IMG/VR virus record: IMGVR_UViG_3300033182_000991
Location: 1 to 64,000 of that record
Direction: 5' to 3' (one strand)
Length of the DNA stretch: 64,000 bases
From: a virus
Part shown: in pieces, positions 28,735-51,699 of the stretch
Layout of the letters: every line of letters begins with the position of its first letter
How positions within the stretch are numbered: the stretch's first letter is position 1
Position numbers and translations under genes: made by a program
Notes under the pieces: model-generated
Seen by the model: the letters and a program-made list of their open reading frames with translations, nothing else
Told to the model about the DNA's origin: nothing
The model's database searches: none

Positions 28735-31700
28735 ATGGCTAAAAATCTAAGAATTGTACCGAACCCCACGGGTTCTACACCGTATATATTATTTGAAAAT
28801 ACTTCAGGTGGAAAGATACAGATGAACATCAAGGATGATGGTTCTATTGTATTCTCTGGTGCAACCAATGGTGATGACTTATTTAAGATGGATGCCAACG
28901 CTCAGAACATTAGAGTTGGTAAGGATGTTAACTTTGAAAATGATATCTATTTTGATAATAAGTTAACCATTTCTGATGATGGTCAATGGGTTGGTACTGA
29001 TGTTGGTGTAAAAGGTAACAAAGGTAGTTTAGGTCCCACTGGCGACCAAGGTGAGAAAGGTCTTAAAGGTTTAAGAGGTTCTCAAGGTGGTGGTGGTGAC
29101 CAAGGTCCTACAGGTGATGATTTCCAAGGTTCAACAGGTCCACAGGGACCACAAGGTCCCACAGGTGAAGACAACACGAAGGGTGATGTCGGTTTCAAAG
29201 GTATTAAAGGTTCCCAAACAAAAGGTCAAAAAGGTCCACAGGGTAGTTCTCCAAGAGGTTCACAAGGTTCGCAAGGGGCATCTCCTAAAGGTATTAAAGG
29301 TGGTCAAGGTCCTCAGGGAGCGATAGGTCCCCAAGGTGGGCAAGGTGTCTCTACGAGGGGTCCTGAAGGTTCATTGGGGGATTCTTTCCAAGGTTCTACA
29401 GGTCCTACAGGTGATTCATCACCAGGGGATGTGGGTGGACAAGGTTCGCAGGGAGCTCAGGGTCCTGGTGGTGATAAGGGTGTTAAGGGACCTGGTGGTT
29501 TGCAAGGGGACAAAGGTCCTACCGCACCTAAAGGTCCAAAAGGATTGAAAGGACCTACCGCACCTAAGGGTCCTAAAGGTTATAAAGGTACAAAAGGTTT
29601 GAAGGGTACTAAGGGTGCTCAGGGTAATTCACCAAGAGGTGCTCTTGGACCACAAGGTGTTTCTCCTATCGGACCACAGGGTACTCAAGGTACGTCACCG
29701 AGAGGTAATCAAGGTGTTATCGGAATTCAGCCAGGTCGTGGTGCACAAGGTGATGCAAATCCAGGACCAACAGGACCTACGGGTTCCACAAATCAGGGAC
29801 CTCAAGGTTCTACAGGTCCAACCAACCAAGGTCCACAAGGTCCTGTTGGTTCTCAGGGTCCTGCGGGTAATGCAGGTCCGAAAGGTCTTAAAGGTTATAA
29901 AGGTACTAAGGGTACCAAAGGTCATAAAGGTTATAAAGGTAATATCGGTGCGTCACCTGTAGGTCCAAGAGGTCCACAAGGTGCGTCGCCTCAAGGACCT
30001 CAGGGTGGTCAGGGACCGCAAGGAGCAGCCAACCCAGGTCCTGTAGGGCCAGGTGGTTCTGCATTTACAGGTAGTGGTGGTGACCAAGGTCCTGTGGGTC
30101 CTCAGGGTAATGACGGACCAAAAGGTCCTAAAGGTATTAAGGGTAATCTTGGTTCCAAAGGTCTTAAAGGTACCAAAGGTAATATTGGTAACTCACCAAG
30201 AGGTCCACAAGGCTCTCAAGGAGCATCACCGAGAGGTGGTACTGGTGCGATAGGTACACAAGGAGCTGCGAATCCTGGACCACAAGGTCCAACAGGTTCA
30301 TCTTTCACTGGTGATGGTGGTGACCAAGGACCAACAGGGCCAACAGGAAACGACGGACCTAAGGGTCTCAAAGGGTACAAAGGTGCTACTGGAGCCAAAG
30401 GATATAAGGGACACAAAGGTTATCGTGGAGCATCACCTCAAGGTCCTATTGGTCCACAAGGTGCATCTCCTCAGGGTGGACAAGGTGCAAGGGGTAATCA
30501 AGGTGCGGCCAATCCAGGTCCTAAAGGTCCTGTAGGTTCAACTAACCAAGGTTCAACAGGACCTCAAGGTTCGGGAGGACCAACGGGTTATGATGGACCT
30601 AAGGGTCCAAAAGGTTACAAGGGAACCAAAGGATTGAAAGGTCGTAAGGGTTTCAAGGGATATATAGGTGGTTCTCCTCAAGGACCAAGAGGTGGTACAG
30701 GGTCTTCACCACAAGGGGGTCAAGGTAATCAGGGTCCTCAGGGTGATGCGAATCCGGGGCCACAAGGACCAACAGGACCATCTTTCCAAGGTTCTACAGG
30801 TCTTCAAGGACCGACAGGTCCAACTGCAGGTGATGGTCCTAAGGGACCAAAAGGTATCAAAGGACCTAAGGGATTGAAAGGTCGTAAGGGTATCAAAGGT
30901 AATGTTGGTAATTCGCCAAGGGGACCTCAAGGTGCTCAAGGAGCATCTCCACGAGGACCACAAGGTAACAGAGGTGGTACAGGTGCTGCCAACCCAGGAC
31001 CAAAAGGACCTGTAGGTTCTTCATTCCAAGGTGCACAAGGAGCTCAGGGTTCCACAGGTCCTACTGGTAATGATGGACCAAAAGGTTATAAGGGATATAA
31101 AGGTGCTTTGGGTGCCAAAGGTTATAAAGGTCATAAGGGTTATCGTGGTTCTTCACCACAAGGTCCTATTGGTAACCAAGGGGGTTCTCCTCAAGGACCG
31201 AGAGGTGCGGGTGGTCCACAAGGTGCCGCTAATCCAGGTCCAAAGGGTCCTGTTGGTGATACAAATCAAGGTTCAACAGGTCCACAAGGTTCAACAGGAC
31301 CACAGGGTAATGACGGACCAAAGGGGCCAAAAGGTTACAAGGGAACCAAAGGTCATAAGGGATATAAAGGACCTAAAGGTTATGTTGGTTCATCACCAAG
31401 GGGTCCTCAGGGTCCACAGGGTGCATCTCCAAGAGGTAATACAGGTGATAATAATCCTGGTCCGACTGGTCCAACAGGTTCTTCGTTCCAAGGTTCAACG
31501 GGTCCTCAGGGTAATGATGGAACAAAAGGTCATAAGGGTTATGTAAGTGCTAAGGGGCACAAAGGTTATATAGGTACGTCGCCAAGAGGTCCTCAAGGGT
31601 CTCAAGGAGCGTCTCCAAGGGGACCGCAGGGTGCTGCCAACCAAGGTGGTACGGGTCCAACGGGTTCTGCCTTCCAAGGTGATAAAGGACCTACAGGTAA

Positions 31701-32898
31701 TGCGGGTGCAAAAGGTTACAAAGGTCTTAAAGGTAGAAAGGGCCATAAAGGTTACATCGGTACTTCACCATTAGGTCCACGAGGTTCTGCGGGTGACTCA
31801 CCAAGAGGTGGTACAGGAGCCAACAATCCGGGGCCTCAAGGACCGACAGGTTCATCATTCCAAGGTTCAACAGGACCACAGGGTAATGACGGACCAAAGG
31901 GGCCGAAAGGTTATAAGGGTGCTAAGGGTCACAAAGGTTATATTGGTTCTAAGGGTCCACAGGGTTCTTCACCAAAAGGACCTATAGGTCCAACAGGTGA
32001 ATCAGAACCAGGTCCAAAAGGTCTTAAGGGACCTAAGGGTTATAAAGGTAGTCCTGGTACAGATGCTAAGGGACGTAAAGGTGGTCCCGGTGCCAAAGGT
32101 ACGAAAGGTCTTAAAGGTTATAAGGGTGATGTAAATACTCAAGCGGGTTCAACGGGTTCAACAGGTCTATATCCAGGTCCGAAGGGACCTAAAGGTTATG
32201 CGGGTAAGATTGGACCATCGGGTACAGGTCCTAAGGGTCCGAGAGGTAACCAAGGGGGTGCGGGCTCAAAAGGTTTGAAAGGTTATAAGGGTAATAAGGG
32301 ACCTAAAGGGTTCAAAGGTCCTGCATCTTCATGTTATTCGGTAACAATGTTCGGTCCGGCTGGTGACGCAGGTGAAGCTTGTATACCTGAGGAATGGAAT
32401 GGTTATTCTGACTGTTCAACTCCGGCTGATGGTTGTAAGGTTTATCAGGTAAGTACCTGTACTTCATGTACATCTTTAACGGGTTTATTCTTAAGTGACG
32501 GTGCAGATGTATTTGAAGTAGGACCTAACAGTGACCCTTGTGAATTAGTTTTTGTTCAAGGTTGTGGTCGTTCGGATGTTAGATTGAAGAATAACATTGA
32601 GACTCTAACAAATATCACAGAGAGAATTCTTGAGATTGATGTGAAAGAATATGATTGGAATGAGAATTTACCTAACTATCAAGACTTAAAAGATAAAGAT
32701 AAGTTACACTCTATCGGTATTATTGCTCAGGAATTGTTACCAATCTTCCCTGAGTTAGTGTATAGAAGAAGTGATGGGTACTACAGTATCTACTACTATA
32801 AGTTGAATGCCATATTAATTGAGGCTGTTAAAGAACAGCAAAGAGAGATTGAGTCTATTGACCAAGACATTAAACTATTATCACAAAAATTGAGTTAA
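28735..32898 (+). CDS. Giant collagen-like fibre 1 with S74 chaperone domain
   Basis: The 1387-residue protein has an N-terminal anchor-like region (1-90: MAKNLRIVPNPTGSTPYILF, DDGSIVFSG, DDGQWVGTD), a collagen-like region of Gly-X-Y triplets (about 95-1200) and a C-terminal part with a cysteine-bearing knob (about 1200-1285, SSCYSVTMFG, GCKVYQVSTCTSCTS) and a peptidase S74 intramolecular chaperone (SDVRLKNNIETL with the Ser/Lys site, HSIGIIAQELLPIFPELV). S74 domains trimerise fibres and then cut themselves off. Lysine is concentrated at Y positions (GPKGPKGYKGTKGLKGRKG type), proline mostly at X. Regular G-x-S-P-R/Q and A-N-P interruptions punctuate it. A TATTTATT lies 29 nt upstream. Likely a tail or capsid-decorating fibre. 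Confidence 0.93.
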   Translation: MAKNLRIVPNPTGSTPYILFENTSGGKIQMNIKDDGSIVFSGATNGDDLFKMDANAQNIRVGKDVNFENDIYFDNKLTISDDGQWVGTDVGVKGNKGSLGPTGDQGEKGLKGLRGSQGGGGDQGPTGDDFQGSTGPQGPQGPTGEDNTKGDVGFKGIKGSQTKGQKGPQGSSPRGSQGSQGASPKGIKGGQGPQGAIGPQGGQGVSTRGPEGSLGDSFQGSTGPTGDSSPGDVGGQGSQGAQGPGGDKGVKGPGGLQGDKGPTAPKGPKGLKGPTAPKGPKGYKGTKGLKGTKGAQGNSPRGALGPQGVSPIGPQGTQGTSPRGNQGVIGIQPGRGAQGDANPGPTGPTGSTNQGPQGSTGPTNQGPQGPVGSQGPAGNAGPKGLKGYKGTKGTKGHKGYKGNIGASPVGPRGPQGASPQGPQGGQGPQGAANPGPVGPGGSAFTGSGGDQGPVGPQGNDGPKGPKGIKGNLGSKGLKGTKGNIGNSPRGPQGSQGASPRGGTGAIGTQGAANPGPQGPTGSSFTGDGGDQGPTGPTGNDGPKGLKGYKGATGAKGYKGHKGYRGASPQGPIGPQGASPQGGQGARGNQGAANPGPKGPVGSTNQGSTGPQGSGGPTGYDGPKGPKGYKGTKGLKGRKGFKGYIGGSPQGPRGGTGSSPQGGQGNQGPQGDANPGPQGPTGPSFQGSTGLQGPTGPTAGDGPKGPKGIKGPKGLKGRKGIKGNVGNSPRGPQGAQGASPRGPQGNRGGTGAANPGPKGPVGSSFQGAQGAQGSTGPTGNDGPKGYKGYKGALGAKGYKGHKGYRGSSPQGPIGNQGGSPQGPRGAGGPQGAANPGPKGPVGDTNQGSTGPQGSTGPQGNDGPKGPKGYKGTKGHKGYKGPKGYVGSSPRGPQGPQGASPRGNTGDNNPGPTGPTGSSFQGSTGPQGNDGTKGHKGYVSAKGHKGYIGTSPRGPQGSQGASPRGPQGAANQGGTGPTGSAFQGDKGPTGNAGAKGYKGLKGRKGHKGYIGTSPLGPRGSAGDSPRGGTGANNPGPQGPTGSSFQGSTGPQGNDGPKGPKGYKGAKGHKGYIGSKGPQGSSPKGPIGPTGESEPGPKGLKGPKGYKGSPGTDAKGRKGGPGAKGTKGLKGYKGDVNTQAGSTGSTGLYPGPKGPKGYAGKIGPSGTGPKGPRGNQGGAGSKGLKGYKGNKGPKGFKGPASSCYSVTMFGPAGDAGEACIPEEWNGYSDCSTPADGCKVYQVSTCTSCTSLTGLFLSDGADVFEVGPNSDPCELVFVQGCGRSDVRLKNNIETLTNITERILEIDVKEYDWNENLPNYQDLKDKDKLHSIGIIAQELLPIFPELVYRRSDGYYSIYYYKLNAILIEAVKEQQREIESIDQDIKLLSQKLS
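29875..31314 (+). repeat. Six exact 240-bp (80-aa) collagen modules in fibre 1
   Basis: K-rich block starts recur at 29875, 30115, 30355, 30595, 30835, 31075 and 31315, each exactly 240 nt apart. Each 80-aa module is eight triplets (mostly Gly-X-Lys), a pentad GxSP[RQV], two triplets, a second GxSP[RQ] pentad, three triplets, a GAANP pentad, two triplets, a GSSF[QT]-type pentad and five triplets: 20 triplets plus four pentads. Confidence 0.9.
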
Positions 32899-34844
32899 TG
32901 GCGCAGAATGTAATCATATATCCATCGGGTAGTACCAAGAATCCATACCCACACATTGAGTTTTCAGGTGTGAATGGATACTACTATTGGGAAATTAATG
33001 AGGATGGGGTGTTATACTCTTACCAACCTAACATTCCAACGAGTGGTCTGACTATGTATTTTGATGCTGCGGCATATGACTCATATTCAGGTGGTACGTT
33101 ATGGTGGGATTTGACGGGTGGTCGTTATCTAATTGGTGAAGGTGATGGTGTTCAATACGATGGTGTGATGACTGGTGCTACAAAATATAGAAACGTCAAT
33201 CAGTTGATACATACTGAAGCCTCTGCGATTAATGTTAATACAGTTAATGAGTGGTGGTTCTCAGATATTGCTAATGGGTTGGAAGATATTAACTTTAATA
33301 ATGATTATTATGACCAGCTGATTGCGGGAAATTATGATACTATATTTGTAAGACTTTATAAGTCTACTGAACCCGATACTTACTACCAAGTTTATAGTGG
33401 GAGTGGTGCGTCTTTAGTTGCTGGTGATGACCTTAAACTTAATATGGTTCGTATAGATGGTGTTAATAGTTGGGACGGTTCAGACATTTATAATACTCAA
33501 AGAGCAGGGTATCCTGGTTTGAATAACAAAGATTTAGATGGTGTGGTCACTGTTGAATTTATCCCATCAAGGAATGGTAGTGGACTAAGTGCTTCTACAA
33601 CAAATGCCAGTTTGGTTAATGCTCCTTACCACAATCCTATTAATGGTGGTGTATTCAGGTTTGATGCTACCAATGAATACGCAAGAGCCTTAGACCCAAA
33701 CATTCGTGGGGGAAGTATTTCTCGTACTATGATTGGATTCTTCAGTGCGGGTACATCTGAGAATGGATGTATTTTTGGTATTGGTGACCAACCTGAAAAT
33801 AACGGTGGTGCTAACTCATCATGGGAGTTATGGAATTATAATCAATCGTCAGGTGCGGGATTAAGAATCCATACTCAAAGTTTTAATTTTGGTACCAGTC
33901 CTGAATATAGATTGACTGACAATTTAGATAAGTGGTTGATGGCGGTTCTTAGTTATGATACTGATGCTAACGTTGCGTCACTAAAGATTTATGATGATGG
34001 TGTGGTAACCTCAGGTACGAGTAGTAATTCATCTATTGATACTATTACAAATAACTTCTCAGTTAATAAATCTGCATATGGTAGTGAAGGTGGTGGTATG
34101 ACAGGTAATTTTGCGTTAGCCTTATACTATGAAAGAGAAATTTTAGATAGTGAGATAGAACAAATTTATAGAGTATTCTCCCCAAGGTTTGGTGTGACTC
34201 CAGCTATTGTTAAGCCAGGACTTGAAATGTGGTTGGATGCCAAAAATACTAACAGTTATACTGGTGGTACTATATGGCATGACTTAACTGAAAACGGTAA
34301 TGATGGAACTATCAATGGTCCGACCCATACTGACTACTACTTAGACTTTGACGGTACTGACGATTACGTTTCTTTACCAGCACAGACTATGTACCGTTCA
34401 GGTGGTACGATATGTATGTTATTTAACAAAGATGCCGAGAACGGAGGATTGTTATGGGGTGCAAACTATGATAGACATTTATCAACACTATCAAATAATT
34501 TCTATGGTGAAACTGCATCAAACTGTAATAGTTTTAATTCACCAACTTACAGTGCAGGGACAGGTAATTGGGTTCAGTATACATTAGTTTTCACGGGGAA
34601 TAGTGCTTATCACTATATTGATGGTGTTTCCATTGGTGAGACTCCAAATTATGGTTCAATAAACTGTGGAAGTGCCACTACTCAATTAGAGGCTGACTTC
34701 CCATTTAGTAGAATTGGTAATTCAACACAATACGTTGGAAACTTTGATGGTAAGATTTCGGTGGTATTGAAATACGATAGACCATTAACTCAAACTGAAA
34801 TCACTAAAAACTACGATGCATTAAAGCAAAGATACAGTGATTAA
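32898..34844 (+). CDS. LamG/concanavalin-domain fibre or adhesin
   Basis: A 648-residue protein. Its first ~40 residues (MAQNVIIYPSGSTKNPYPHI, NEDGVLYS) resemble the N-terminal anchor region of collagen fibres 1 and 3. Two LamG-like beta-sandwich domains follow: LTMYFDAAAYDSYSGGTLWW with a distant partner near 200-420, and LEMWLDAKNTNSYTGGTIWH, YYLDFDGTDDYVSLPA, VQYTLVFTGNSAYHYIDG, ISVVLKYDRPLTQTEI near 440-645. Such domains bind carbohydrates. The gene begins in the last codon of fibre 1 (stop/start overlap), so it is part of the fibre operon. Probably a receptor-binding adhesin. Confidence 0.8.
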   Translation: MAQNVIIYPSGSTKNPYPHIEFSGVNGYYYWEINEDGVLYSYQPNIPTSGLTMYFDAAAYDSYSGGTLWWDLTGGRYLIGEGDGVQYDGVMTGATKYRNVNQLIHTEASAINVNTVNEWWFSDIANGLEDINFNNDYYDQLIAGNYDTIFVRLYKSTEPDTYYQVYSGSGASLVAGDDLKLNMVRIDGVNSWDGSDIYNTQRAGYPGLNNKDLDGVVTVEFIPSRNGSGLSASTTNASLVNAPYHNPINGGVFRFDATNEYARALDPNIRGGSISRTMIGFFSAGTSENGCIFGIGDQPENNGGANSSWELWNYNQSSGAGLRIHTQSFNFGTSPEYRLTDNLDKWLMAVLSYDTDANVASLKIYDDGVVTSGTSSNSSIDTITNNFSVNKSAYGSEGGGMTGNFALALYYEREILDSEIEQIYRVFSPRFGVTPAIVKPGLEMWLDAKNTNSYTGGTIWHDLTENGNDGTINGPTHTDYYLDFDGTDDYVSLPAQTMYRSGGTICMLFNKDAENGGLLWGANYDRHLSTLSNNFYGETASNCNSFNSPTYSAGTGNWVQYTLVFTGNSAYHYIDGVSIGETPNYGSINCGSATTQLEADFPFSRIGNSTQYVGNFDGKISVVLKYDRPLTQTEITKNYDALKQRYSD

Positions 34845-34846
34845 AC

Positions 34847-34854
34847 TATTTATT
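34847..34854 (+). promoter_or_regulatory. Putative late-promoter element TATTTATT
   Basis: TATTTATT is 14 nt before ATG 34869, in the only gap inside the fibre cluster. Confidence 0.45.
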
Positions 34855-34868
34855 AAAAGACTTGAATT

Positions 34869-35117
34869 ATGACAAATTATACTTACTTGATAATCAAAAC
34901 GAACGAGGTTGATAAGGTTGATTTCAGCCAAGTCAGAGAGACATCATCTGAAACTTTGAGACATAGTTTGGATGATACAAAGACATTTATTAAGTGGGAT
35001 AATGAAACGCCAACTTTTGTGAATAATTTTGAATGGACGGACGGTCCTTATAATCATACACAAATAATTAATATTTTATCTACGGATGAATGGGTTGATA
35101 CTAATGGGCCGAGTTAA
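34869..35117 (+). CDS. Small tail-region protein, 82 aa
   Basis: MTNYTYLIIKTNEVDKVDFS starts a small acidic protein with pattern FIKWDNETPTFVNNFEW and IINILSTDEWVDTNGPS. Its stop overlaps the start of fibre 2, so the two are translationally coupled. Position suggests a fibre accessory or assembly protein; no family recognised. Confidence 0.65.
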   Translation: MTNYTYLIIKTNEVDKVDFSQVRETSSETLRHSLDDTKTFIKWDNETPTFVNNFEWTDGPYNHTQIINILSTDEWVDTNGPS

Positions 35118-41900: not shown

Positions 41901-42840
41901 TGCATTCCAAGGGTCAACAGGTCCTCAAGGTAACGACGGAACAAAAGGTCATAAGGGATATGTAAATACTAAAGGTCATAAGGGTTATAGAGGGGGTTCA
42001 CCACAAGGACCTATCGGTCCACAAGGTGCATCCCCGAGAGGGGGACAAGGTTCTGCTAATCCAGGTCCTACAGGACCAGGTGGTTCGGCATTCCAAGGAG
42101 ATAAAGGTCCACAAGGTCCAAAAGGTCCGACAGCACCTGATGGACCACGAGGTCCAACTGGAGCTACTGGTTCACCAGGACCTGAAGGGCCAATAGGTTC
42201 AACAGGACCACAAGGTTCTGTTGGTTCTCCAGGTGCTAATGGAGTAAAAGGACCAAAAGGTCCTAAAGGTGCACAGGGTTCTGCCGGTACAGGTGGTTCC
42301 ATAGGTTCTAAAGGTCCACGTGGTCCACAGGGTGCTGCCAATCCTGGTGGTACGGGTGACAAAGGTCCAAAGGGTCCTAAGGGTTACACTGCAACTGCTG
42401 CACCTGGTCCAAAAGGTCCTAAAGGATATATTGGTAATACTGGTGGTACGGGACCAGTAGGTGGTAGAGGTCCGATTGGTTCAACAGGTTCGTCAGGTTC
42501 TTCAGATAGAAGATTGAAGAAAAACTTCCGTGAAATCAAAGATGCATTGGATAAAGTATTGAAGATGCGTGGTGTTCACTTTACATGGGTTGAAGAGAAT
42601 ACTGTTGATGGTTCATATGTACCCACAGGTCAACAAGACATTGGTGTAATTGCACAGGAAATTAAGGAACAATTCCCTGAATTGGTAAGAGAAGAGGATA
42701 GTGGTATCTTAACTGTACAATACGCATTGATGGTTTCAATTTTGACTGAGGCTATTCAACAACAAAACTCAATTTTAGATAAGAAAGAGATTGAGTTAGA
42801 ACGTTTAGAAGTACTTGCGAAATCTAAAGGATTGTTATAA
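38905..42840 (+). CDS. Giant collagen-like fibre 3 with S74 chaperone domain
   Basis: The 1311-residue protein starts MAKNIKITPKSGIIEFSGAT, like fibre 1 and the LamG protein, followed by a GGVWQG linker, Gly-X-Y repeats (about 92-1195), and an S74 domain: SSDRRLKKNFREIKD, VHFTWVEEN, DIGVIAQEIKEQFPELV and a coiled-coil end. A proline-richer stretch (GPTGATGSPGPEGPIGSTGP) lies near the C-terminal end of the collagen. Same Lys-in-Y bias. Last gene of the fibre operon; followed by the fucosyltransferase-like gene after 54 nt. Confidence 0.93.
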   Translation: MAKNIKITPKSGIIEFSGATSSSIDLGHNESSDELKFSGSSLDPVRLTVKGGYTFNSDSKVLVENSGEVLSKGQKRIDKGGVWQGPRAQDKGIKGFKGTKGPNAVTAETGDKGYRGTQGTIGANQAVGTRGNQGPQGGIGSQGQKGIKGPAGGVGSTADPSPAGDKGPTAPKGPKGYKGTKGAKGGAGDKGQKGNIGNKGIKGIVGTSPKGFIGPQGSSPQGEKGPQGDSPKGIKGVKGTKGDRGGSGTGGDNNPGAQGPVGDSVQGSTGPTGISVQGPAGSQGPTGPGGDKGPIAPDGAKGFKGIKGTTGDKGIKGIKGVKGDKGYKGPKGIKGHKGFIGLSPQGPRGATGASPIGPQGPQGASPIGPQGGQGGQGNATPGPEGDLGSAFQGSGGAQGPTGPQGNDGPKGPKGYKGSEGLKGRKGIKGNIGNSPIGPQGPQGASPQGAQGARGNTGAANPGPQGPGGSANPGAQGPGGDKGPTGNDGAKGYKGTKGAKGHKGYKGNKGLRGNSPVGPRGGTGASPQGAQGNRGGTGAPNPGPKGPIGDTNQGSTGPQGSGGPTGYDGPKGPKGIKGPKGLKGRKGVKGYIGTSPQGPIGPQGASPRGPQGARGGQGAANPGPTGPTGSSFTGSGGDQGPVGPQGNDGPKGPKGYKGALGAKGLKGRKGNIGNSPRGPQGPQGASPRGNTGARGVTGANNPGPQGPGGSSFQGSGGAQGPTGPGAGDGAKGYKGIKGSLGAKGYKGHKGYRGASPQGPIGPQGSSPKGYRGPQGVQGATNPGPKGPVGSTNQGSTGPQGSGGPTGYDGPKGPKGIKGPKGLKGHKGYKGNIGNSPQGPIGPQGASPRGNQGARGGQGAANPGPTGPTGSAFQGSTGPQGPTGPTAGDGAKGYKGLKGIKGHKGYTGSSPRGPQGAQGASPRGNTGAANPGPKGPKGYSNPGDKGPTGNDGAKGYKGLKGRKGHKGYIGNSPRGPQGSQGASPRGPQGAANQGGTGPTGSAFQGSTGPQGNDGTKGHKGYVNTKGHKGYRGGSPQGPIGPQGASPRGGQGSANPGPTGPGGSAFQGDKGPQGPKGPTAPDGPRGPTGATGSPGPEGPIGSTGPQGSVGSPGANGVKGPKGPKGAQGSAGTGGSIGSKGPRGPQGAANPGGTGDKGPKGPKGYTATAAPGPKGPKGYIGNTGGTGPVGGRGPIGSTGSSGSSDRRLKKNFREIKDALDKVLKMRGVHFTWVEENTVDGSYVPTGQQDIGVIAQEIKEQFPELVREEDSGILTVQYALMVSILTEAIQQQNSILDKKEIELERLEVLAKSKGLL
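40126..41565 (+). repeat. Six exact 240-bp (80-aa) collagen modules in fibre 3
   Basis: Module starts at 40126, 40366, 40606, 40846, 41086, 41326 and 41566, each 240 nt apart, with the shared layout. Confidence 0.88.
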
Positions 42841-42894
42841 AAATCTATTTTGTTTTTGGGTAATATGATTAACTTTTCTTAAAAAGAACGAGTT

Positions 42895-43944
42895 ATGTTT
42901 TACAATTACAAACCTTCCAAAGAAAGATATATTGTTTATAGAACCAACGACGGTGGTATTGGTGATAGATTGATAGGTGCAATGAATGCCTTCCTGATGG
43001 CGTTCGTTAACGATTATCATTTTAGAATCCAAGACAATACTAAAACACCAATGGTTGAAGTGTTCACAAGCAATCATAACTGGTGGAAAAGAGATTGGTT
43101 TGAGACTCCCATGAAACGAGGTAGGTTAAATCTACTATCTTCTTATGATGACTTAGTACAGTATATTACAGAAGGTACCATTGAAGATTACTACCCAAAC
43201 GCGGAGTGTTTGTATTTTTACTCCAACCAAAACTTAGTACCATACTTTTTCAAAAATCCTGAATATAAATTGAAACTTGATAAGATTGGGATTACTCAAG
43301 AGAATGTATACTCTGAAATGTTCAATTACCTGTTCACCTTGGAGGACGAATATAAAAAGAACTACAACTACCTTAAGAGTAAGTTGTTCTTAGATGTTAA
43401 GTATGTAATTGGTGTACATCTTAGAACCAATTGGAATTGGGGTGATGTACCACAAATAAGTAGAAACACCGTTCAAAAGTTTATCACAGCAATCAATCAG
43501 AATTACTTACCCAATGCAAGAGTATTGGTATCATCAGATTCACAGATGGGTTATGACATGTTGAAGGAAGGTATCAAAGGTATGGATGTTGTAAGAATTT
43601 CAGGTGATGCCGTTCACATTTCAAAAGATGATAATACTAAGTTAAATGACTTATTGAAAACGGTATTTGAAATCTATCTTTTGTCTGAATCTGATTTGTT
43701 GATTGGTTCTTATTGGTCAAACTTTACACGATTGTCAGTGATGAAAAGTCCAAAGAAATCAGTGATGGTAGAAATGGAAGTGGAACCGTATGATACTGCA
43801 AATGAATCCACAAAGTATTGGGTGGAGCAAATGGGTCATTCGTTAAGTGATGTGTATACAGACATTAAAAAAGCTTTTAGATTCCCACTAACAATAAAGG
43901 GTCACACAAAGTGCGACCCCGAAGTATTGTTTACTATTAAGTAA
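42895..43944 (+). CDS. Fucosyltransferase-like glycosyltransferase (NodZ/O-FucT superfamily pattern)
   Basis: A 349-residue protein with an N-terminal YRTNDGGIGDRLIGAMNAFLMA (about 15-36), the nucleotide-binding style seen in GDP-fucose transferases, and the later motifs YVIGVHLRTNWNWGD (about 163-177, with the conserved His-x-Arg), ARVLVSSDSQMGYDML (about 202-217) and LLSESDLLIGSYWSNFTRLS. This matches the order of the NodZ/POFUT superfamily. It would add fucose, or a related GDP-sugar, to a glycan. It lies right after fibre 3 and converges with the GT17 gene (8-nt overlap). Confidence 0.7.
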   Translation: MFYNYKPSKERYIVYRTNDGGIGDRLIGAMNAFLMAFVNDYHFRIQDNTKTPMVEVFTSNHNWWKRDWFETPMKRGRLNLLSSYDDLVQYITEGTIEDYYPNAECLYFYSNQNLVPYFFKNPEYKLKLDKIGITQENVYSEMFNYLFTLEDEYKKNYNYLKSKLFLDVKYVIGVHLRTNWNWGDVPQISRNTVQKFITAINQNYLPNARVLVSSDSQMGYDMLKEGIKGMDVVRISGDAVHISKDDNTKLNDLLKTVFEIYLLSESDLLIGSYWSNFTRLSVMKSPKKSVMVEMEVEPYDTANESTKYWVEQMGHSLSDVYTDIKKAFRFPLTIKGHTKCDPEVLFTIK

Positions 43945-45592
43945 TTAAATCAAAAAGATAGTTTGAATTGTATTGGGGGTTAATCTTTTCCTCCAACATA
44001 ATTCTATTCATCGGGTAGTAATTCCAATCGTGTGATTTTGATAATTCTTCATCAAAAAGATTTAACTCAGAAGAGATAAGTCCTTCCACATAACTCACAT
44101 CTTCATTGTAGTAATGAGAATCTAATCTTCTCATCAACTCCAAAGATTGTTCAGGTGTACCAAAGAATTCTAATTTCCATCCTCTAAATGTTTTTAAGAA
44201 GTGGTCCACCCAGTGGCTACGGTCTCTGAAATACTGAGCACCAAACTCTTTCAATCTATTAAAGGTACACATCTGAGTTCCTGAGATTTCGTAGTTATTA
44301 TTCTCAAGGTCAAAATTCCAAACGAAGTGTCTCATACGTAGAGTTAAGAATTCATATTCAATATAATCATAATGGAATATATTAGATTCAATAAGACGTG
44401 AGTCCATCACTTCGTCAGTGTTTGAAATGAATATGTAATCAGTATCTTTCACATTGAGGTATTCCAACAATGGTGTAATACTATTTCTATGGTGTGATTG
44501 ACGATGGTAATATGGGTCATCATCCAATATTTCTTCAGGTTCATCAACCACGGTGTATATAATCTTATCGTCGTAGTCTTTGAATCTCCATAACTCATTC
44601 TTAAGTGTAGGTTCTTGAGGTTCACCATCGTAGGTGTATGAGGTTTCAAGGATAATGAAGTAATCCATCTCTTCATTTAACTCCTTTAATCTCATCTCTA
44701 ATACATCCAATTCACCATTGTATATGATACAGTCATATCTTTTGGGATAGTCCTCCACATCAAAGAACATAAGTTGTTCAGGGTTGGGTGGAAGATAGTC
44801 ACCCTCTACTTTGATTAACCTTTCAGTGGTACCTTTAGGTGTTTCAGGTGGTAAACCTTCTTTGATAAGGTGAGCAATATTCCTCTTAGAAGAGAAGAAG
44901 TTAGATGCGGTTTCACTGTGAGCGAAAGAGAACATCTTATCTTGAATAAACTTAGGACTACCAAACCATGATAGGTGCCAACCACAGTAGGTACGAACAA
45001 ACTCATCACTATCATCATCCCAACGAATATTCCTTAGGTGTTGGATGATATCGTTATCCTCGTCCAACTGTTTCTTTGTAATGATACTGGTACCACCCCA
45101 AATGTAATTCTTCTCCCAATTGGTATTCCATATAAACCATCTCTGTTCACAGATGACTGGTTTGATGTCCACCAATGGTTCAATCTTATACATCAAATCT
45201 AAGTCAGGTAGTTCATCAACATCAGAAACGAAGATGATGTCTTCAGGTGAAAGATTAAGTTTGTCAATACCTCTGCTGATTGCTCTACGTTGGTGGTGTT
45301 CCCTTACCCAGTTCATATTCTGAATCTCAGGGATTGCCACCAGCTCATTGATTTGTTCTTGAGTGAGGTTCTCAGGGAAGTCAGTGACGATGATGTGAGT
45401 AATCTTATCCAAATACTTTTGGTACCTCTTCTTATGTATGGTGAAGTATAATGGTTTCTCTGCACCAGTATGTGTTTTATTAGACTCTACTAATATGAAG
45501 TGGTCCACTTTGTCGTATAGTGTTTCTAATCTATACTCCAACACATCAAATTCATTGTAAAAGATAAACGAATCTACTAATTTTCTACTCAT
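43937..45592 (-). CDS. Double-domain GT17-like glycosyltransferase
   Basis: The 551-residue protein is a tandem duplication. The first half has DSFIFYNEFDVLEYRLETLY, DHFILVESNKTHTG and IIFVSDVDELPD; the second has YDCIIYNGELDVLEMRLKEL, DYFIILETSYTYDG and YIFISNTDEVMDSR. These match family GT17 (beta-1,4-N-acetylglucosaminyltransferase type), with DxDE as the metal-binding motif. In the second half this is NTDE, so that copy may have altered metal binding. Its start overlaps the stop of the carbamoyltransferase gene (ATGA), so the two are co-translated. Likely a glycan-extending enzyme. Confidence 0.82.
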   Translation of the reverse strand: MSRKLVDSFIFYNEFDVLEYRLETLYDKVDHFILVESNKTHTGAEKPLYFTIHKKRYQKYLDKITHIIVTDFPENLTQEQINELVAIPEIQNMNWVREHHQRRAISRGIDKLNLSPEDIIFVSDVDELPDLDLMYKIEPLVDIKPVICEQRWFIWNTNWEKNYIWGGTSIITKKQLDEDNDIIQHLRNIRWDDDSDEFVRTYCGWHLSWFGSPKFIQDKMFSFAHSETASNFFSSKRNIAHLIKEGLPPETPKGTTERLIKVEGDYLPPNPEQLMFFDVEDYPKRYDCIIYNGELDVLEMRLKELNEEMDYFIILETSYTYDGEPQEPTLKNELWRFKDYDDKIIYTVVDEPEEILDDDPYYHRQSHHRNSITPLLEYLNVKDTDYIFISNTDEVMDSRLIESNIFHYDYIEYEFLTLRMRHFVWNFDLENNNYEISGTQMCTFNRLKEFGAQYFRDRSHWVDHFLKTFRGWKLEFFGTPEQSLELMRRLDSHYYNEDVSYVEGLISSELNLFDEELSKSHDWNYYPMNRIMLEEKINPQYNSNYLFDLIT

Positions 45593-47388
45593 TTGATTAA
45601 CATTTTATTATTGATAACAACGGCGTCTATATCTGAATTATTGAAAAGTTCTATGGCTTCCTCAGGGGTTTCCACAATCGGTTGTCCATTCACATTAAGC
45701 GAAGTGTTCAATACGATTGGGACTCCTGTGTGTGTACCCAACTTCTCAATCAAACTATAGAGTTTGTCATTTATTTCTTTGGTTAGTGTTTGTACTCTCG
45801 CTGTACCATCAACATGGGTTACTGCGGGTATTTCCCACGGCTTCTTAACAGGACAAGTGTATAACATATAAGGTGAATCTACATCTATGTCAAACCATTC
45901 ACTCACTCTTTCTTTTAATACGATAGGTGCAAACGGTCTAAACCATTCTCTATGTTTCACCCTCGCGTTTAATATCTCTTTCATCTTCGGGTCCGTTGGG
46001 TTAGCTAAGAACGAACGGTGACCTAAGGCACGTGGACCGAACTCACTCCTCCCTTGAAACCAAGCGACTATCTTAGAATCGGCTAACATCTGAGCGATGA
46101 CATCTTCATCGTAGTCAATACCCGCCTCAATGTCTTCATAGTCATTACCTGTAAAACATACATCACTAATCTCAAACCTCTGACGTGGAATGTCCTCCAA
46201 ATTGTATGAACAGTAAAGTGCTGCACCGACAGATAATCCATCATCACCAGTGGCTGGATATAAGTGAAGGTCATCAAACCTCATAGTGTTCAATAACTTA
46301 TAGTTGGAGGTACAGTTCAACATAGTCCCACCAACAATACATAAGTTACCTTCGTTCATCCCATCAGTCAATGTGTAGAGTTGGTCAACATATTTTTGTA
46401 TGGTCTTCTCTAACACAAACTGAATAGATGCAGAATGATTGAACCTCTCTTCCAAAGTCATCTCCTCGTGTTTGTCTAATATTTTGGTTGGGTAAAGGAA
46501 ACTATCCATCCTTTCAATGGCTTCATTACGTTCCTCTTCAATCCAAATTCTGAGTTCTCTCCAAGGTCTTTCGGTTATGTAAGATGATGCCCAACAATTA
46601 AAGGTTACATTATCAGTATGATTGGTCATCATATGTTGTGGTTCAGAAAGTAGTTCCCAATTGTTCTTAATCTTTTCTGATACCTTTCCATATGATGAGG
46701 CTCCCATAGTCGTACCTGCTTTGAATATACCAGGTCCGAAGTCTAACATCTCAGTCATTACGGTATATAGATTTCCAATAGTTGTGTTGGGTGAACCTAT
46801 ATAAGTAATCTGATTACCATCACCTAAAAAATAGGCTGAAGACCTTTCCCCACTGATACCTGAGGCATCCAAAGAAAGGATTGCAGACCTCTCTAAGTTG
46901 TTAGTATAATATACAGACGCTGCGTGTGCTGTATGGTGGTTAATAATATTACCACCTTTAAGGACCTTACCACCTAAAAGAACATTACAACTGATGAAGT
47001 TACGTTGGTTGTAGTCCGCTAAAGGAACATAGAAATGATTGTGTTCAAATATCTCATAACCATATTCAGGATGAAGATTATTACCGTCATTGACAATACT
47101 TCTGAAGGTTGGGTGTAAAGTACCAAAAGGATATTCGTAAAGGTCTTCCTCTCTGAAGAACAATCTCACAAATGTATCGGTGTAATCTATATTACCAATG
47201 GCGACGTAATCAATATCATCAATGGTCAACCCATGAGGTTTCAAAATATAGTCAATGACTTCCCAACTAAGATATTTATCTTTCTTTATACGTGATATTC
47301 TCTCTGTGGAAACAGAAGATATTAACTGACCGTCAATCACCAAACATGCGGATGAATCGTGACCACTTGTAAGACCGAGTATTTTCAT
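45589..47388 (-). CDS. NodU/CmcH-family carbamoyltransferase
   Basis: A full-length (599 aa) O-carbamoyltransferase. N-terminal YrdC/Kae1-like fold: LGLTSGHDSSACLVIDGQLI, a metal-binding HHTAHAASVYYT (about 153-164), SLDASGISGERSSAYFLGDG, GTMLNCTSNYKL and GDDGLSVGAAL; C-terminal domain WFQGRSEFGPRALGHRSFL and VPIVLNTSLNVNGQPIVETP. NodU and TobZ move the carbamoyl group of carbamoyl phosphate to a sugar hydroxyl through carbamoyl-AMP. In a phage with many glycosyltransferases it would decorate a glycan. First gene of a two-gene minus-strand operon, divergent from the 47453 oxygenase. Confidence 0.92.
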   Translation of the reverse strand: MKILGLTSGHDSSACLVIDGQLISSVSTERISRIKKDKYLSWEVIDYILKPHGLTIDDIDYVAIGNIDYTDTFVRLFFREEDLYEYPFGTLHPTFRSIVNDGNNLHPEYGYEIFEHNHFYVPLADYNQRNFISCNVLLGGKVLKGGNIINHHTAHAASVYYTNNLERSAILSLDASGISGERSSAYFLGDGNQITYIGSPNTTIGNLYTVMTEMLDFGPGIFKAGTTMGASSYGKVSEKIKNNWELLSEPQHMMTNHTDNVTFNCWASSYITERPWRELRIWIEEERNEAIERMDSFLYPTKILDKHEEMTLEERFNHSASIQFVLEKTIQKYVDQLYTLTDGMNEGNLCIVGGTMLNCTSNYKLLNTMRFDDLHLYPATGDDGLSVGAALYCSYNLEDIPRQRFEISDVCFTGNDYEDIEAGIDYDEDVIAQMLADSKIVAWFQGRSEFGPRALGHRSFLANPTDPKMKEILNARVKHREWFRPFAPIVLKERVSEWFDIDVDSPYMLYTCPVKKPWEIPAVTHVDGTARVQTLTKEINDKLYSLIEKLGTHTGVPIVLNTSLNVNGQPIVETPEEAIELFNNSDIDAVVINNKMLIK

Positions 47389-47452
47389 TAAAAATCTACT
47401 TTATTTTTAAGTAATGATAAGTTATACTTTATGAAAATTAAACAACTTATTT

Positions 47453-48061
47453 ATGTATTATTCAGACCCATTTATTGACGACCACAAAAGTGAAGAGGTT
47501 CACTATTACACATACTATTCATTTGAAAACGTATTCAACGATGAAGATATTGAATACATAAAACAATGGGGTGCACACTTCCCTTCTTCGGACGGTGAAG
47601 TAGGTGGTGAAGACACACTCGGTATCAATGAAGATATTCGTATTAGTAAGGTAAGTTGGATTCAACTTGAAGAAGGTACTCAATGGATTTTTGATAGACT
47701 GGCTCAGTGTGCTATTACTGCGAACAAAGAGATGGGTTGGGACTTTGACCTTTCAGGATTCGGTGATGAGATTCAATACACAGAATACTTTGGTGAGAAC
47801 AATGGTCACTACTCTTGGCACGGTGATATCGGTCCAAACGTACCACATAGAAAGTTGTCTATTGTTGTTCAACTTACAGACCCTGAAGAATATGAAGGTG
47901 GTGAGTTAGAATTAAGTGCTGGTAGTTTCTTAGTTGATGCACCTAACAAAAAAGGTTCAGTCATCGTATTCCCATCATTTGTTCTACACAGAGTATTACC
48001 ACTTACCTCAGGTGAGAGAAGGTCATTGGTAAGTTGGATTTCTGGTCCAAGATTCAAGTAA
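47453..48061 (+). CDS. 2OG/Fe(II) oxygenase, prolyl/lysyl-hydroxylase-like (PKHD type)
   Basis: The 202-residue protein has the double-stranded beta-helix of 2-oxoglutarate oxygenases: first iron ligands His123 and Asp125 in HYSWHGDIG, VQLTDPEEYEGGELEL, and the distal His179 in VFPSFVLHRVLPL with the 2OG-binding Arg189/190 in GERRSLVSWISGP. This is the prolyl 4-hydroxylase/PKHD pattern. Such enzymes hydroxylate Pro or Lys. Near giant collagen-like fibres and with a PLOD-like transferase that lacks its hydroxylase domain, this is the best candidate to hydroxylate fibre lysines. The next gene starts 1 nt after its stop. Confidence 0.88.
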   Translation: MYYSDPFIDDHKSEEVHYYTYYSFENVFNDEDIEYIKQWGAHFPSSDGEVGGEDTLGINEDIRISKVSWIQLEEGTQWIFDRLAQCAITANKEMGWDFDLSGFGDEIQYTEYFGENNGHYSWHGDIGPNVPHRKLSIVVQLTDPEEYEGGELELSAGSFLVDAPNKKGSVIVFPSFVLHRVLPLTSGERRSLVSWISGPRFK

Positions 48062-48062
48062 C

Positions 48063-48494
48063 ATGTTGGTAAGGTATACAGGAGGAAGTTACACTGACTT
48101 ATTCAAAGAACATGAGAAATTTATTCTATTAGTGTTCATTGATTTACAGTTGGTATTTAATCCTGGATGGAACCTATCATTATCTCCATCCTTTGGTACC
48201 ACACCAGAGCAATCTAATCACAATGTAGAGATAATGAAAAACTTCCCTGACGTGGTGTACGTTGAAACCATGCACAGTGAGGCTTACGATATGATTAATA
48301 ACTTTGGTTTTGATTATGACAATGAAATAATGGACTTACACAACGGTCATTACAAACCAATGATTGTAGGTGTAAAGAAAGGGAGAGTAGTTAGTCACTC
48401 CATCGGAAGATGTTATTGTGTTGAAACATATGTGGATATCATCCACAGTCTATATCCTGAATTATTTGAACCAACCAGTGTAAGTGAGTCTTAA
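48063..48494 (+). CDS. Thioredoxin-fold-like protein without CxxC
   Basis: A 143-residue protein coupled to the upstream oxygenase. FILLVFIDLQLVF, VEIMKNFPDVVYVETMHSEA and HYKPMIVGVKKGRVVSHSIG follow the strand order of a thioredoxin fold with the usual cis-proline region (KPM), but no CxxC pair occurs at the active-site position. A redox-inactive fold acting as partner or chaperone to the oxygenase is possible. Its 3' end overlaps the convergent gene by 33 nt. Confidence 0.5.
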   Translation: MLVRYTGGSYTDLFKEHEKFILLVFIDLQLVFNPGWNLSLSPSFGTTPEQSNHNVEIMKNFPDVVYVETMHSEAYDMINNFGFDYDNEIMDLHNGHYKPMIVGVKKGRVVSHSIGRCYCVETYVDIIHSLYPELFEPTSVSES

Positions 48495-49184
48495 CTGTTC
48501 CACACCTGGATTTACGTGAGATACGTAATGCCACTTCCCAACACCTTTAGGTAAATCAAACAATGTCAAAGTGTTGAACTGAGGTACTTCTACTCTTTCA
48601 ACATCCATAGTATCGTGATTCATAAAGTGTAGATTACCACCGTATTGAGGTAACCAATCTTTGGTGAGTTGGTATACAAATCCTGTTGTTCCATTTGGTG
48701 AGTCTACGTGAGGGGAAAGGAAATCGCCAGGTAGATATACGGCAGCAAATACTTCATCAGTTGTAGTGACTGTTGAGTCAATCACTTCATTGATAAATGA
48801 AATAGACTCCTCACCCAACAACCATTGCCTGAGTTCACATTCAAAACAACTACAGGTAGATTGATGGTCGTCAACGGTTCTGTGGAAACAATAGGAGAAG
48901 TCTCCATTACCAAATGCTTTTGTTGCAATTGAATAGTTTTTTCTAATCTCGTCTTCATGTTCAGGTGAGAATATAACTGAGTCGAACCCATCACCTCCGT
49001 TTGATTTTGGATGAGTAGAAACTCTCCACCAATCCCTTGGCATTTCTTCGGTTAAGTAATGGTGTATACGTTCGGCGTATTCATCCTTTAAGAAGTCTTC
49101 AATGACTACTACTCTTTTAGTGATGTACTCCTCTCTGATTGACTGAATATCTAAATCAGGGTTGATGATATCTTTCAAGGTCAT
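48462..49184 (-). CDS. 2OG/Fe(II) oxygenase (Tpa1/P4H-like)
   Basis: The 240-residue protein starts VVVIEDFLKDEYAERIHHYL, the usual N-terminal helix region of prolyl 4-hydroxylase-like proteins. Iron ligands appear as His159 and Asp161 in LSPHVDSPNG; then VYQLTKDWLPQYGGNLHFM, and a distal His223 with Arg232 in HVNPGVEQLRLTYTGWF. A cysteine cluster CSCFEC lies at about 111-116. It probably hydroxylates a phage or host protein; the fibres are candidates. Start 2 nt after the stop of the neighbouring oxygenase gene, same operon. Confidence 0.82.
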   Translation of the reverse strand: MTLKDIINPDLDIQSIREEYITKRVVVIEDFLKDEYAERIHHYLTEEMPRDWWRVSTHPKSNGGDGFDSVIFSPEHEDEIRKNYSIATKAFGNGDFSYCFHRTVDDHQSTCSCFECELRQWLLGEESISFINEVIDSTVTTTDEVFAAVYLPGDFLSPHVDSPNGTTGFVYQLTKDWLPQYGGNLHFMNHDTMDVERVEVPQFNTLTLFDLPKGVGKWHYVSHVNPGVEQLRLTYTGWFK

Positions 49185-49186
49185 AA

Positions 49187-49765
49187 TTAATATTCTGTGT
49201 TGAAGAAAAATACTTGAAATAGTCTTCCATCATTTATATCTCTACCGAAGTAATCTAATGAGATATGGAAATTGTCGGCTCTATACATAACCATTCGATT
49301 AAATAGATTTCCAAACTTATCTACCTGTTCCCATTTGGTAATGTCTTTTGCCGTTTCCATTGGTGAGTTAGGGTCGAACTCATCGTCCTTATGTTCCTCA
49401 TAATTCCAACTCATCAGTCCTGTGTGTTTGTGACGATAAATTCCTGTTCCTGCGGTTACAGGTGCGTCGGGTGTTAGATATAGTACTGCTGCCCAATCAG
49501 TATAAGAGTCTGAGTGAATCCATGAACGGTCTTGGGCGGTCGTATACTGGAATGAACCTGTATATTCACCACCCCAAAAGGTTACCTCACCTGCGATGGG
49601 TCTTAAAATATCTGCTAAACCTTCTTTAATATCTTCATTAAGGTGTGGTTTGGTTCTGAAACCTGGAAAGTTGCCAGTCACGTCAAACTCTTGCTGAAGA
49701 GCAAAGTCTCGTACCTCGTAAGGGTTGCTGTAAAAATCATCAATGATTAATGAATTGACTCTCAT
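49187..49765 (-). CDS. 2OG/Fe(II) oxygenase-like (DUF6445 type)
   Basis: A 192-residue protein: LIIDDFYSNPYEVRDFALQQ at the start is typical of DUF6445-like oxygenases, then His84 and Asp86 in SWIHSDSYTDWAAVLYLTPD, GTGIYRHKHTG, and His167/Arg181 in MVMYRADNFHISLDYFG and DGRLFQVFFFN. Ligand spacing fits the 2OG oxygenase barrel. It leads the two-oxygenase minus-strand operon. Substrate unknown; a sugar or peptide hydroxyl group are both possible. Confidence 0.75.
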   Translation of the reverse strand: MRVNSLIIDDFYSNPYEVRDFALQQEFDVTGNFPGFRTKPHLNEDIKEGLADILRPIAGEVTFWGGEYTGSFQYTTAQDRSWIHSDSYTDWAAVLYLTPDAPVTAGTGIYRHKHTGLMSWNYEEHKDDEFDPNSPMETAKDITKWEQVDKFGNLFNRMVMYRADNFHISLDYFGRDINDGRLFQVFFFNTEY

Positions 49766-51063: not shown

Positions 51064-51699
51064 ATGAACGCAAGTAAAAAATGTAATTTAATATACTGGG
51101 GGACTGCGGGATGTGGTTCTCGTAGTATCGGTAGTTTCATTCAAAGAGTTGGATGTGACGATTTTAAGAACACCGTGTACGACCAACTCATTGCAGTGGA
51201 ATGTTCCCATACTCATAACGTAGGAATACCTGAAGGTTATGAAGATTGTGATATCGTTGCCGTGGTTAGAAACCCATATTCATTATTTGTGAGTAGGTGG
51301 TTTGACGAGTCCAATGACTTTGAATACGAAGAAGTAAGAAATGGATTCAAAGATTTTGTGTATAATAATCCGTTGTGGGATTACTTTGGACAAGGTGATT
51401 TCTTTTTCCTACATCAATGGAAAGAGATTGGTAGGTTTCCCAACCATATTATAAGGATGGAACATATGGAAGAAGACTTAAATAAGGTCAAAGTCCTTAG
51501 AGATATGGAAAAGTTTGATGAAAGTATCGAAACATATGTCACGCAAAATATATTCAAGAACGGTTCTAAGAACGACAGTTACATCGGTGAACATCAGGAT
51601 TATAAGATTTATTGGACAGAAGATATTGCAGACTTCTTTTATGAGAAGATGGAGGAATATTTCACCACCTTCAATTATGATAGAGATTCTTGGAAGTAA
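51064..51699 (+). CDS. Sulfotransferase-like protein
   Basis: The 211-residue protein has a 5' PAPS-binding loop pattern IYWGTAGCGSRSIGSFI (about 9-25) and a 3'-phosphate motif IVAVVRNPYSLFVSRW (about 64-79), as in the sulfotransferase family. Shorter than most (about 280 aa). It would move sulfate from PAPS to a hydroxyl or amine. Together with the glycosyl- and carbamoyltransferases it fits glycan decoration, which is inference. The next gene follows behind its own TATTTATA. Confidence 0.8.
   Translation: MNASKKCNLIYWGTAGCGSRSIGSFIQRVGCDDFKNTVYDQLIAVECSHTHNVGIPEGYEDCDIVAVVRNPYSLFVSRWFDESNDFEYEEVRNGFKDFVYNNPLWDYFGQGDFFFLHQWKEIGRFPNHIIRMEHMEEDLNKVKVLRDMEKFDESIETYVTQNIFKNGSKNDSYIGEHQDYKIYWTEDIADFFYEKMEEYFTTFNYDRDSWK

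What the first reader, a model, noticed from the sequence alone, without database searches (positions are those of the whole stretch)
28735..49765. Candidate phage collagen system: fibres, split lysyl hydroxylase and glycan decorators
Three collagen-like fibres with lysine mainly in the Y position (X-Lys-Gly, the lysyl hydroxylase site) occur in one genome with a PLOD-like transferase that lacks its hydroxylase, three separate 2OG/Fe(II) oxygenases (47453, 48462, 49187), fucosyltransferase-like and GT17-like enzymes, a carbamoyltransferase, a sulfotransferase and a nested methyltransferase. Together these could hydroxylate fibre lysines, add a first sugar, then extend and cap it. Each family call is from sequence; the joint pathway is inference.
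Basis: inference. Interest (0 to 1): 0.95.

Follow-up and report, generated by a model that had tools for sequence, protein, structure and literature searches.

The report
Phage collagen fibres with modifying enzymes
This virus of bacteria carries three giant collagen-like fibre genes together with an enzyme closely related to the one that puts sugars on animal collagen, and many other marine phages carry relatives of these enzymes right beside their own collagen fibres, so collagen modification of the animal type probably exists in bacteriophages, although in this particular phage the enzyme for the lysine hydroxylation step has not been found.

Summary
In other phages (391 IMG/VR stretches; Synechococcus and Roseobacter isolates) GT_PLOD sits in a GT25-GT_PLOD-LH fusion. 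With >5 kb upstream held, 66/72 such loci carry a Lys-in-Y collagen; in matched cyanophage loci 5/5 with the fusion against 1/30 without. Homologues of oxygenases 47453 and 49187 lie directly upstream of the fusion in many phages. So a phage collagen-modification system is supported. Details are not: ox47453 looks like a prolyl hydroxylase (fold; tracks Pro in X), not the missing lysyl hydroxylase; no LH domain is in the 113 kb record, probably a fragment; Lys-in-Y alone is not diagnostic (49/50 records with Lys-rich phage collagens lack GT_PLOD); fucosyl-, carbamoyl- and sulfotransferase genes are unlinked to collagen outside close kin, though GT17 recurs with the oxygenases. No held paper describes collagen lysine modification in phages. 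All chemistry is inferred.

The parts
17996..20074 (+). LH3/PLOD-type glycosyltransferase (692 aa): GT domain residues 16-196 plus 397-470, methyltransferase nested at about 197-396, accessory domain to 690, no lysyl-hydroxylase domain
   Evidence: GT_PLOD E 9.5e-64; LH3 6fxk E 8.6e-51 in two segments either side of the insert, mimivirus R699 9dyt E 4.7e-33, COLGALT1 at 545-689; catalytic residues W54 K72 D95 Y97 D98 W128 N148 D172 D173 Q174 H439 kept; tree with LH3; dN/dS 0.04
28735..32898 (+). collagen-like fibre 1, S74 chaperone at the C-terminus
32898..34844 (+). LamG-domain protein between the fibres
   Evidence: Laminin_G_3 E 8.7e-12; kept in the relative, 82% identity
35117..38905 (+). 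collagen-like fibre 2, S74 chaperone
38905..42840 (+). collagen-like fibre 3, S74 chaperone
42895..43944 (+). putative glycosyltransferase (weak GT37-like), membership in the system unproven
   Evidence: XG_FTase E 0.007, below cut-off; kept in the 42 kb relative, dN/dS 0.11; 0 of 80 fusion loci
43937..45592 (-). tandem GT17-family glycosyltransferase; recurring neighbour of ox47453
   Evidence: PF04724 E 1e-41; adjacent to ox47453 in L499, L502, L503, L547; 0 of 80 fusion loci
45589..47388 (-). NolO/NodU-type carbamoyltransferase, membership unproven
   Evidence: PF16861 E 5e-69; phrog_1601 E 3e-119; only one close relative found by scan
47453..48061 (+). 2OG/Fe(II) oxygenase, prolyl-hydroxylase-like (ox47453)
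   Evidence: invariant H123 D125 H179 R189 in 15 homologues; AF2 model pLDDT 82.7, best PDB match P. putida P4H 4iw3 E 1.6e-11; homologues directly upstream of the GT25-GT_PLOD-LH fusion in 35 of 80 loci; presence tracks Pro in X of the collagen
48063..48494 (+). small ORF co-conserved next to ox47453
   Evidence: homologues next to ox47453 in L499, L500, L502; no family match
48462..49184 (-). 2OG/Fe(II) oxygenase (ox48462), substrate unknown
   Evidence: PF13661 E 8e-12; homologues only in near kin L498, L499, L500
49187..49765 (-). DUF6445 protein, probable 2OG oxygenase (ox49187)
   Evidence: invariant H84 D86 H167 R181 in 12 homologues; homologues (E down to 1e-61) directly upstream of the fusion in 14 of 80 loci
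51064..51699 (+). sulfotransferase-like ORF, membership unproven
   Evidence: below cut-off; kept in L498 and L499
54754..55740 (+). GT11-type fucosyltransferase, membership unproven
   Evidence: PF01531 E 5e-9; kept in L498, dN/dS 0.03

Best explanation
The window holds a phage collagen-maturation system. Three trimeric, S74-chaperoned collagen fibres are modified during assembly. Dedicated 2OG/Fe(II) oxygenases hydroxylate the chains: ox47453 most likely acts on Pro in the X position, and a still unassigned oxygenase acts on Lys in X-Lys-Gly. The LH3/R699-like enzyme at 17996 then transfers a hexose from a UDP-sugar to the hydroxylysine or to a first sugar on it; its nested methyltransferase and the neighbouring GT17 may extend or cap the glycan. 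Shown by computation: the fibres, the LH3-like GT with intact catalytic residues, the missing LH domain, conserved linkage of this enzyme class and of two oxygenases to collagen fibres across phages, and co-variation of ox47453 with Pro in X. Inferred: every catalytic step, the lysine hydroxylation above all, the sugar identities, and any effect on virions.
For: LH3 match across GT and accessory domains (E 8.6e-51) with R699 catalytic residues kept. Tree groups the window GT with human LH3 and mimivirus R699, not with bacterial homologues. In other phages the same GT is fused to GT25 (COLGALT1 E 1e-19) and an LH domain (mimivirus L230 LH E 1e-8) beside Lys-in-Y collagen: 66/72 loci with >5 kb upstream, 32/37 after dereplication, matched control 5/5 against 1/30, p 2e-5. 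ox47453 and ox49187 homologues lie directly upstream of that fusion. ox47453 is present in 12 of 12 divergent fusion loci with Pro in X >= 10% and in 2 of 12 with less, p 7e-5; independent pairs on the tree go 5-6 for, 0 against. Its model matches prolyl hydroxylases. Cluster kept with dN/dS 0.03-0.22 in a relative about 80% identical. Only 6 of 262 fibre lysines are followed by Asp/Glu (KG[DE]), so the usual salt-bridge role does not explain them.
Against: No LH domain in the record, yet Lys in Y is 41% of triplets. Lys-rich phage collagens exist without GT_PLOD (49/50 records), so Lys-in-Y needs no such enzyme. R699's K222/E54 pair is not conserved. The GT lies 8.7 kb from the fibres, not in the oxygenase cluster. 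The GT17-ox47453-ox49187 module occurs in records of 36-85 kb in which no collagen was found (L502, L503, L504, L547), so it may have other substrates. GT_PLOD homologues in Bacteroidota occur without collagen.
Confidence: 0.62

Rival explanations
1. The fibres are ordinary Lys-in-Y phage collagens stabilised by sequence alone; the LH3-like GT, GT17, carbamoyl-, fucosyl- and sulfotransferases modify host surface glycans or another virion protein.
For: Phage collagens without GT_PLOD are often Lys-in-Y rich. Prophage collagens prefer Lys/Arg in Y without known hydroxylase (PMC3368898). Bacteroidota hold GT_PLOD-like enzymes without collagen. The carbamoyl, sulfo and fucosyl genes are not linked to collagen outside close kin.
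Against: The window GT groups with LH3/R699 and not with the bacterial homologues; GT_PLOD in phages is almost always beside collagen; Lys-rich collagens without GT_PLOD usually pair Lys with Asp/Glu (54%), these hardly do (2%).
Confidence: 0.2
2. One reading: the three oxygenases are a split lysyl hydroxylase that works with the LH-less PLOD protein.
For: Profile comparison shows ox47453 distantly related to the phage LH domain (HH probability 97); an LH-less GT25-GT_PLOD next to several oxygenases is also seen in L450.
Against: ox47453 homologues coexist with a complete LH domain in dozens of fusion phages, track Pro rather than Lys and ox47453 matches prolyl hydroxylases. ox48462 and ox49187 show no LH similarity. 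In L450, where LH is absent, Lys in Y is only 6%.
Confidence: 0.12
3. A variant of the best explanation: a fusion-type or LH3-type lysyl hydroxylase exists but lies in the part of the genome that is not in the record.
For: The record is 112.9 kb, classed linear, with no detectable terminase, so it is probably incomplete.
Against: No direct evidence of a second gene; the 42 kb relative keeps the same LH-less GT, but it is also a fragment.
Confidence: 0.3

Closest known systems
Human LH3/PLOD3 (multifunctional procollagen lysine hydroxylase and glycosyltransferase)
   Same: GT and accessory domains in the same order, E 8.6e-51, catalytic residues kept
   Different: no LH domain; a methyltransferase is inserted in the GT domain; found in a phage
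Mimivirus R699 collagen galactosylhydroxylysyl glucosyltransferase (PMC9546862, PMC11838735)
   Same: LH-less PLOD-type GT with accessory domain in a virus with collagens; catalytic set shared
   Different: R699 lacks the methyltransferase insert; its E54/K222 pair is not kept here; host is an amoeba
Mimivirus L230 lysyl hydroxylase/glucosyltransferase acting on collagen L71 (Luther 2011, as cited in PMC9546862)
   Same: viral collagen modified by a viral LH plus GT; the phage fusion LH domain matches the L230 LH structure 6ax6, E 1e-8
   Different: the window phage has no L230-like LH domain
Phage GT25-GT_PLOD-LH fusion (PHROG phrog_61, annotated only as '2OG-Fe(II) oxygenase'; e.g. Synechococcus phage S-CAM9 gp218, Roseobacter phage CRP-6 gp58)
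   Same: GT_PLOD beside Lys-in-Y collagen fibre and, in many phages, ox47453/ox49187 homologues
   Different: the fusion has GT25 and LH domains that the window protein lacks; the window GT is nearer LH3
Prophage collagen-like tail proteins of E. coli O157:H7 (EPcl, PMC3368898)
   Same: collagen-like phage fibre, Lys/Arg preferred in Y
   Different: no linked modifying enzymes reported there; acidic residues preferred in X, which are rare here
Viral P4HA auxiliary gene of Baltic Sea viruses (PMC9301287)
   Same: prolyl-hydroxylase-like gene in viruses, role there called cryptic
   Different: here tied to collagen fibres with Pro in X

Membership tests
PLOD/LH3 family | GT_PLOD domain | tested here: met
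   E 9.5e-64
PLOD/LH3 family | catalytic residues of the GT site (R699 W48, K62, D83, Y85, D86, W118, N138, D162, D163, Q164, H216) | tested here: met
   all kept as W54 K72 D95 Y97 D98 W128 N148 D172 D173 Q174 H439; the K222/E54 pair is not
PLOD/LH3 family | accessory domain after GT | tested here: met
   397-690 aligns to LH3 186-491
PLOD/LH3 family | C-terminal LH 2OG domain (needed to be a lysyl hydroxylase) | tested here: not met
   absent from the protein and from the record at profile level
Collagen GGT (R699 type) | glucosyl transfer to galactosylhydroxylysine | not testable with these tools
   needs enzyme assay
Collagen-like fibre proteins | long G-X-Y repeats with trimerisation or chaperone domain | tested here: met
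   Pfam Collagen and Peptidase_S74, 730 triplets
Collagen-like fibre proteins | folds as triple helix | not testable with these tools
   needs CD or structure
Prolyl 4-hydroxylase (ox47453) | 2OG/Fe(II) HxD...H...R site | tested here: met
   invariant in 15 homologues
Prolyl 4-hydroxylase (ox47453) | P4H-like fold | tested here: met
   best PDB matches P. putida P4H, then PiuC-type, PHD2 and algal P4H
Prolyl 4-hydroxylase (ox47453) | hydroxylates proline | not testable with these tools
   only co-variation with Pro in X; Pro in Y, the animal collagen P4H site, is nearly absent
Lysyl hydroxylase (ox47453, ox48462, ox49187) | scores with the LH-domain profile | tested here: not met
   12, -1 and 0 bits against 64 for human LH3

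The most novel reading that the evidence does not exclude
Bacteriophages possess a full collagen-lysine maturation pathway of the animal type: one polypeptide (GT25-GT_PLOD-LH, PHROG 61) that hydroxylates Lys in Y, galactosylates and glucosylates it, helped by a fibre-dedicated prolyl hydroxylase for Pro in X. The window phage carries an LH3-like split version with an in-built methyltransferase. Viral 'P4HA' auxiliary genes would then be fibre-maturation genes, not metabolic genes.
Probability: 0.5. Interest if true: 0.87.

Novelty: new variant of a known kind. Interest (0 to 1): 0.8.

Why it matters
Collagen lysine hydroxylation and glycosylation are thought of as animal traits, with mimivirus as the viral exception. 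A widespread phage pathway would extend them to bacteriophages, give bacterially expressed enzymes for making modified collagen, offer an answer to what viral prolyl hydroxylases do (called cryptic in PMC9301287), and suggest that many marine phage fibres are post-translationally decorated, which would bear on fibre stability and adsorption. It is directly testable in cultured Synechococcus and Roseobacter phages (S-CAM9, S-PRM1, CRP-6).

Tried and rejected
(1) Lys-in-Y as proof of lysyl hydroxylation: rejected; GT_PLOD was found on 1 of 50 records with Lys-rich and 0 of 49 with Lys-poor phage collagens. (2) ox47453 as the missing lysyl hydroxylase: rejected as first choice. (3) phrog_61 matches of the free oxygenases as proof of LH identity: rejected, because the C-terminal part of that profile also takes in gp219- and gp220-type oxygenases. 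(4) Structure of ox49187: model failed (pLDDT 37). (6) Single-protein scans with the window PLOD and the window carbamoyltransferase found only one relative contig each time, the same one. (7) ox49187 against fibre composition: too few cases to say. (8) Bacterial genome scan for GT_PLOD: 16 distant homologues, no linked collagen beyond one 8-triplet match.

Full report
What is there. The window is bases 1-64000 of a 112,919-base IMG/VR virus record with no terminase match, so probably a fragment. Three ORFs at 28735, 35117 and 38905 encode collagen-like fibres with a C-terminal S74 endosialidase chaperone. Their collagenous regions of about 1,110 residues hold 303 Lys in Y and 1 in X over 730 triplets, about 90 Pro in X and 1-2 in Y per chain, and a net charge near +100 per chain. 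Only 6 of 262 scored lysines are followed by Asp or Glu in the KG[DE] register, against 54% in Lys-rich phage collagens from a pattern scan.

The PLOD-like protein. It is at 17996-20074, outside the given coordinates. GT_PLOD scores E 9.5e-64. Human LH3 aligns in two segments, 16-185 and 397-690, covering GT and accessory domains; the 200 residues between them are a class I methyltransferase (Methyltransf_23, below the curated cut-off); nothing corresponds to the LH domain. The residues that bind Mn, UDP and sugar in mimivirus R699 (PMC11838735) are kept, except the K222/E54 pair. A tree puts the window domain with LH3 (96/80) and R699, away from Bacteroidota homologues and from most phage homologues.

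Other phages. Nine Synechococcus phage records, Roseobacter phage CRP-6 and a marine virus hold GT_PLOD. There it is the middle of a three-domain protein: GT25 (COLGALT1 E 1e-19), GT_PLOD (R699 E 4e-32), LH (mimivirus L230 LH domain E 1e-8). PHROG 61, annotated just '2OG-Fe(II) oxygenase', is this protein (E 3e-294). IMG/VR holds hundreds (391 stretches). All 80 retrieved have all three domains.

Link to collagen. The fibre next to S-CAM9 gp218, in S-8S55 and next to CRP-6 gp58 has G-X-Y repeats with Lys only in Y. Where more than 5 kb upstream is held, 66 of 72 fusion loci have a collagen ORF, 32 of 37 after dereplication; in the latter Lys is 0 in X and 1253 in Y. Two of the exceptions have collagen elsewhere on their record. 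In cyanophage loci of at least 10 kb anchored on an unrelated helicase gene, collagen is present in 5/5 with the fusion and 1/30 without (p 2e-5).

Reverse test. Lys-rich phage collagens from a pattern scan carry GT_PLOD on 1 of 50 records, Lys-poor ones on 0 of 49. Lys in Y is therefore a general habit of phage collagens and does not by itself point to hydroxylation. Prophage collagens of E. coli show the same habit (PMC3368898).

The oxygenases. Homologues of ox47453 lie directly upstream (0-575 bp) of the fusion in 35 of 80 loci, those of ox49187 in 14 of 80. ox48462, the 42895 ORF, GT17, GT11, carbamoyl- and sulfotransferase have none there. ox47453 presence follows Pro in the X position: at 65% dereplication 12 of 14 loci with it have Pro in X >= 10%, against 0 of 10 without it (p 7e-5). 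On the fusion tree the independent pairs go 5-6 the same way and none the other (sign test p 0.03-0.06). Its AF2 model (pLDDT 82.7) matches prolyl hydroxylases best. It is thus a better candidate for a prolyl than for a lysyl hydroxylase; exceptions are L068, L409, L040 and L450. Pro in X, not Y, is what is available, so the site would differ from animal collagen P4H.

Where is the lysyl hydroxylase? A profile of the phage LH domains scores human LH3 at 64 bits but no oxygenase of this record above 14 bits. It is either one of the seven or so oxygenases (not recognisable by homology), in the missing part of the genome, or absent.

The neighbours. A 42 kb relative (L005 and L498) keeps the whole cluster, fibres, GT and oxygenases, with dN/dS 0.03-0.22. 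L499 keeps collagen, GT17, ox47453, ox48462, ox49187 and the sulfotransferase-like ORF but has no carbamoyltransferase or 42895 homologue there; L502, L503 and L547 keep GT17 with ox47453, and ox49187 is on those loci, but no collagen was found on their records. GT17 therefore belongs to the oxygenase module; the others are unproven. Independently of the fusion, 46 of 80 loci with ox47453 homologues carry a G-X-Y ORF.

Literature. No held paper combines phages with collagen lysine modification. A Baltic virome paper calls the role of viral prolyl 4-hydroxylase cryptic (PMC9301287). Mimivirus L230 and R699 are the viral precedents. The library lacks most subscription journals and all bioRxiv preprints, so novelty is provisional.

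Verdict. Observation largely right with one gene misplaced; general interpretation supported by comparative evidence; the split-lysyl-hydroxylase and multi-step decoration parts not supported or untested. All chemistry remains inference.

Noticed in passing
window 22160-24688 (+): A TonB-dependent receptor gene (Plug E 3e-12, 842 aa with signal-peptide-like start) in the virus record, 93.5% identical in the relative L005; unusual cargo for a phage.
   Followed up: partly
window 25817-26944 (+): Glutamine synthetase-like gene (Gln-synt_N and _C), conserved in L005.
   Followed up: partly
L006 7401-9242 and about 390 IMG/VR stretches: PHROG 61, labelled '2OG-Fe(II) oxygenase', is a GT25-GT_PLOD-LH fusion and seems under-annotated in many cyanophage genomes.
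   Followed up: yes
L044 2-4225, L047 2-1672: Fusion-linked collagens with almost no proline and Lys in 77-83% of Y positions; their stability without proline is unexplained.
   Followed up: no
L450 1579-8443: A run of 2OG-oxygenase-like ORFs near an LH-less GT25-GT_PLOD gene, a Gly-rich/collagen-like ORF and a carbamoyltransferase.
   Followed up: partly
L003 1134-1724, 6611-7219, 10193-10792; L004 3446-4006: Four further 2OG-oxygenase-like ORFs in the rest of the same virus record.
   Followed up: partly
L498 14552-18205: The relative has one fibre with the N-terminus of window fibre 2 and the C-terminus of window fibre 3, as if fibres recombine within the repeats.
   Followed up: no
L482-L497: GT_PLOD homologues in Bacteroidota and Acetobacteraceae without collagen nearby; function unknown.
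   Followed up: no
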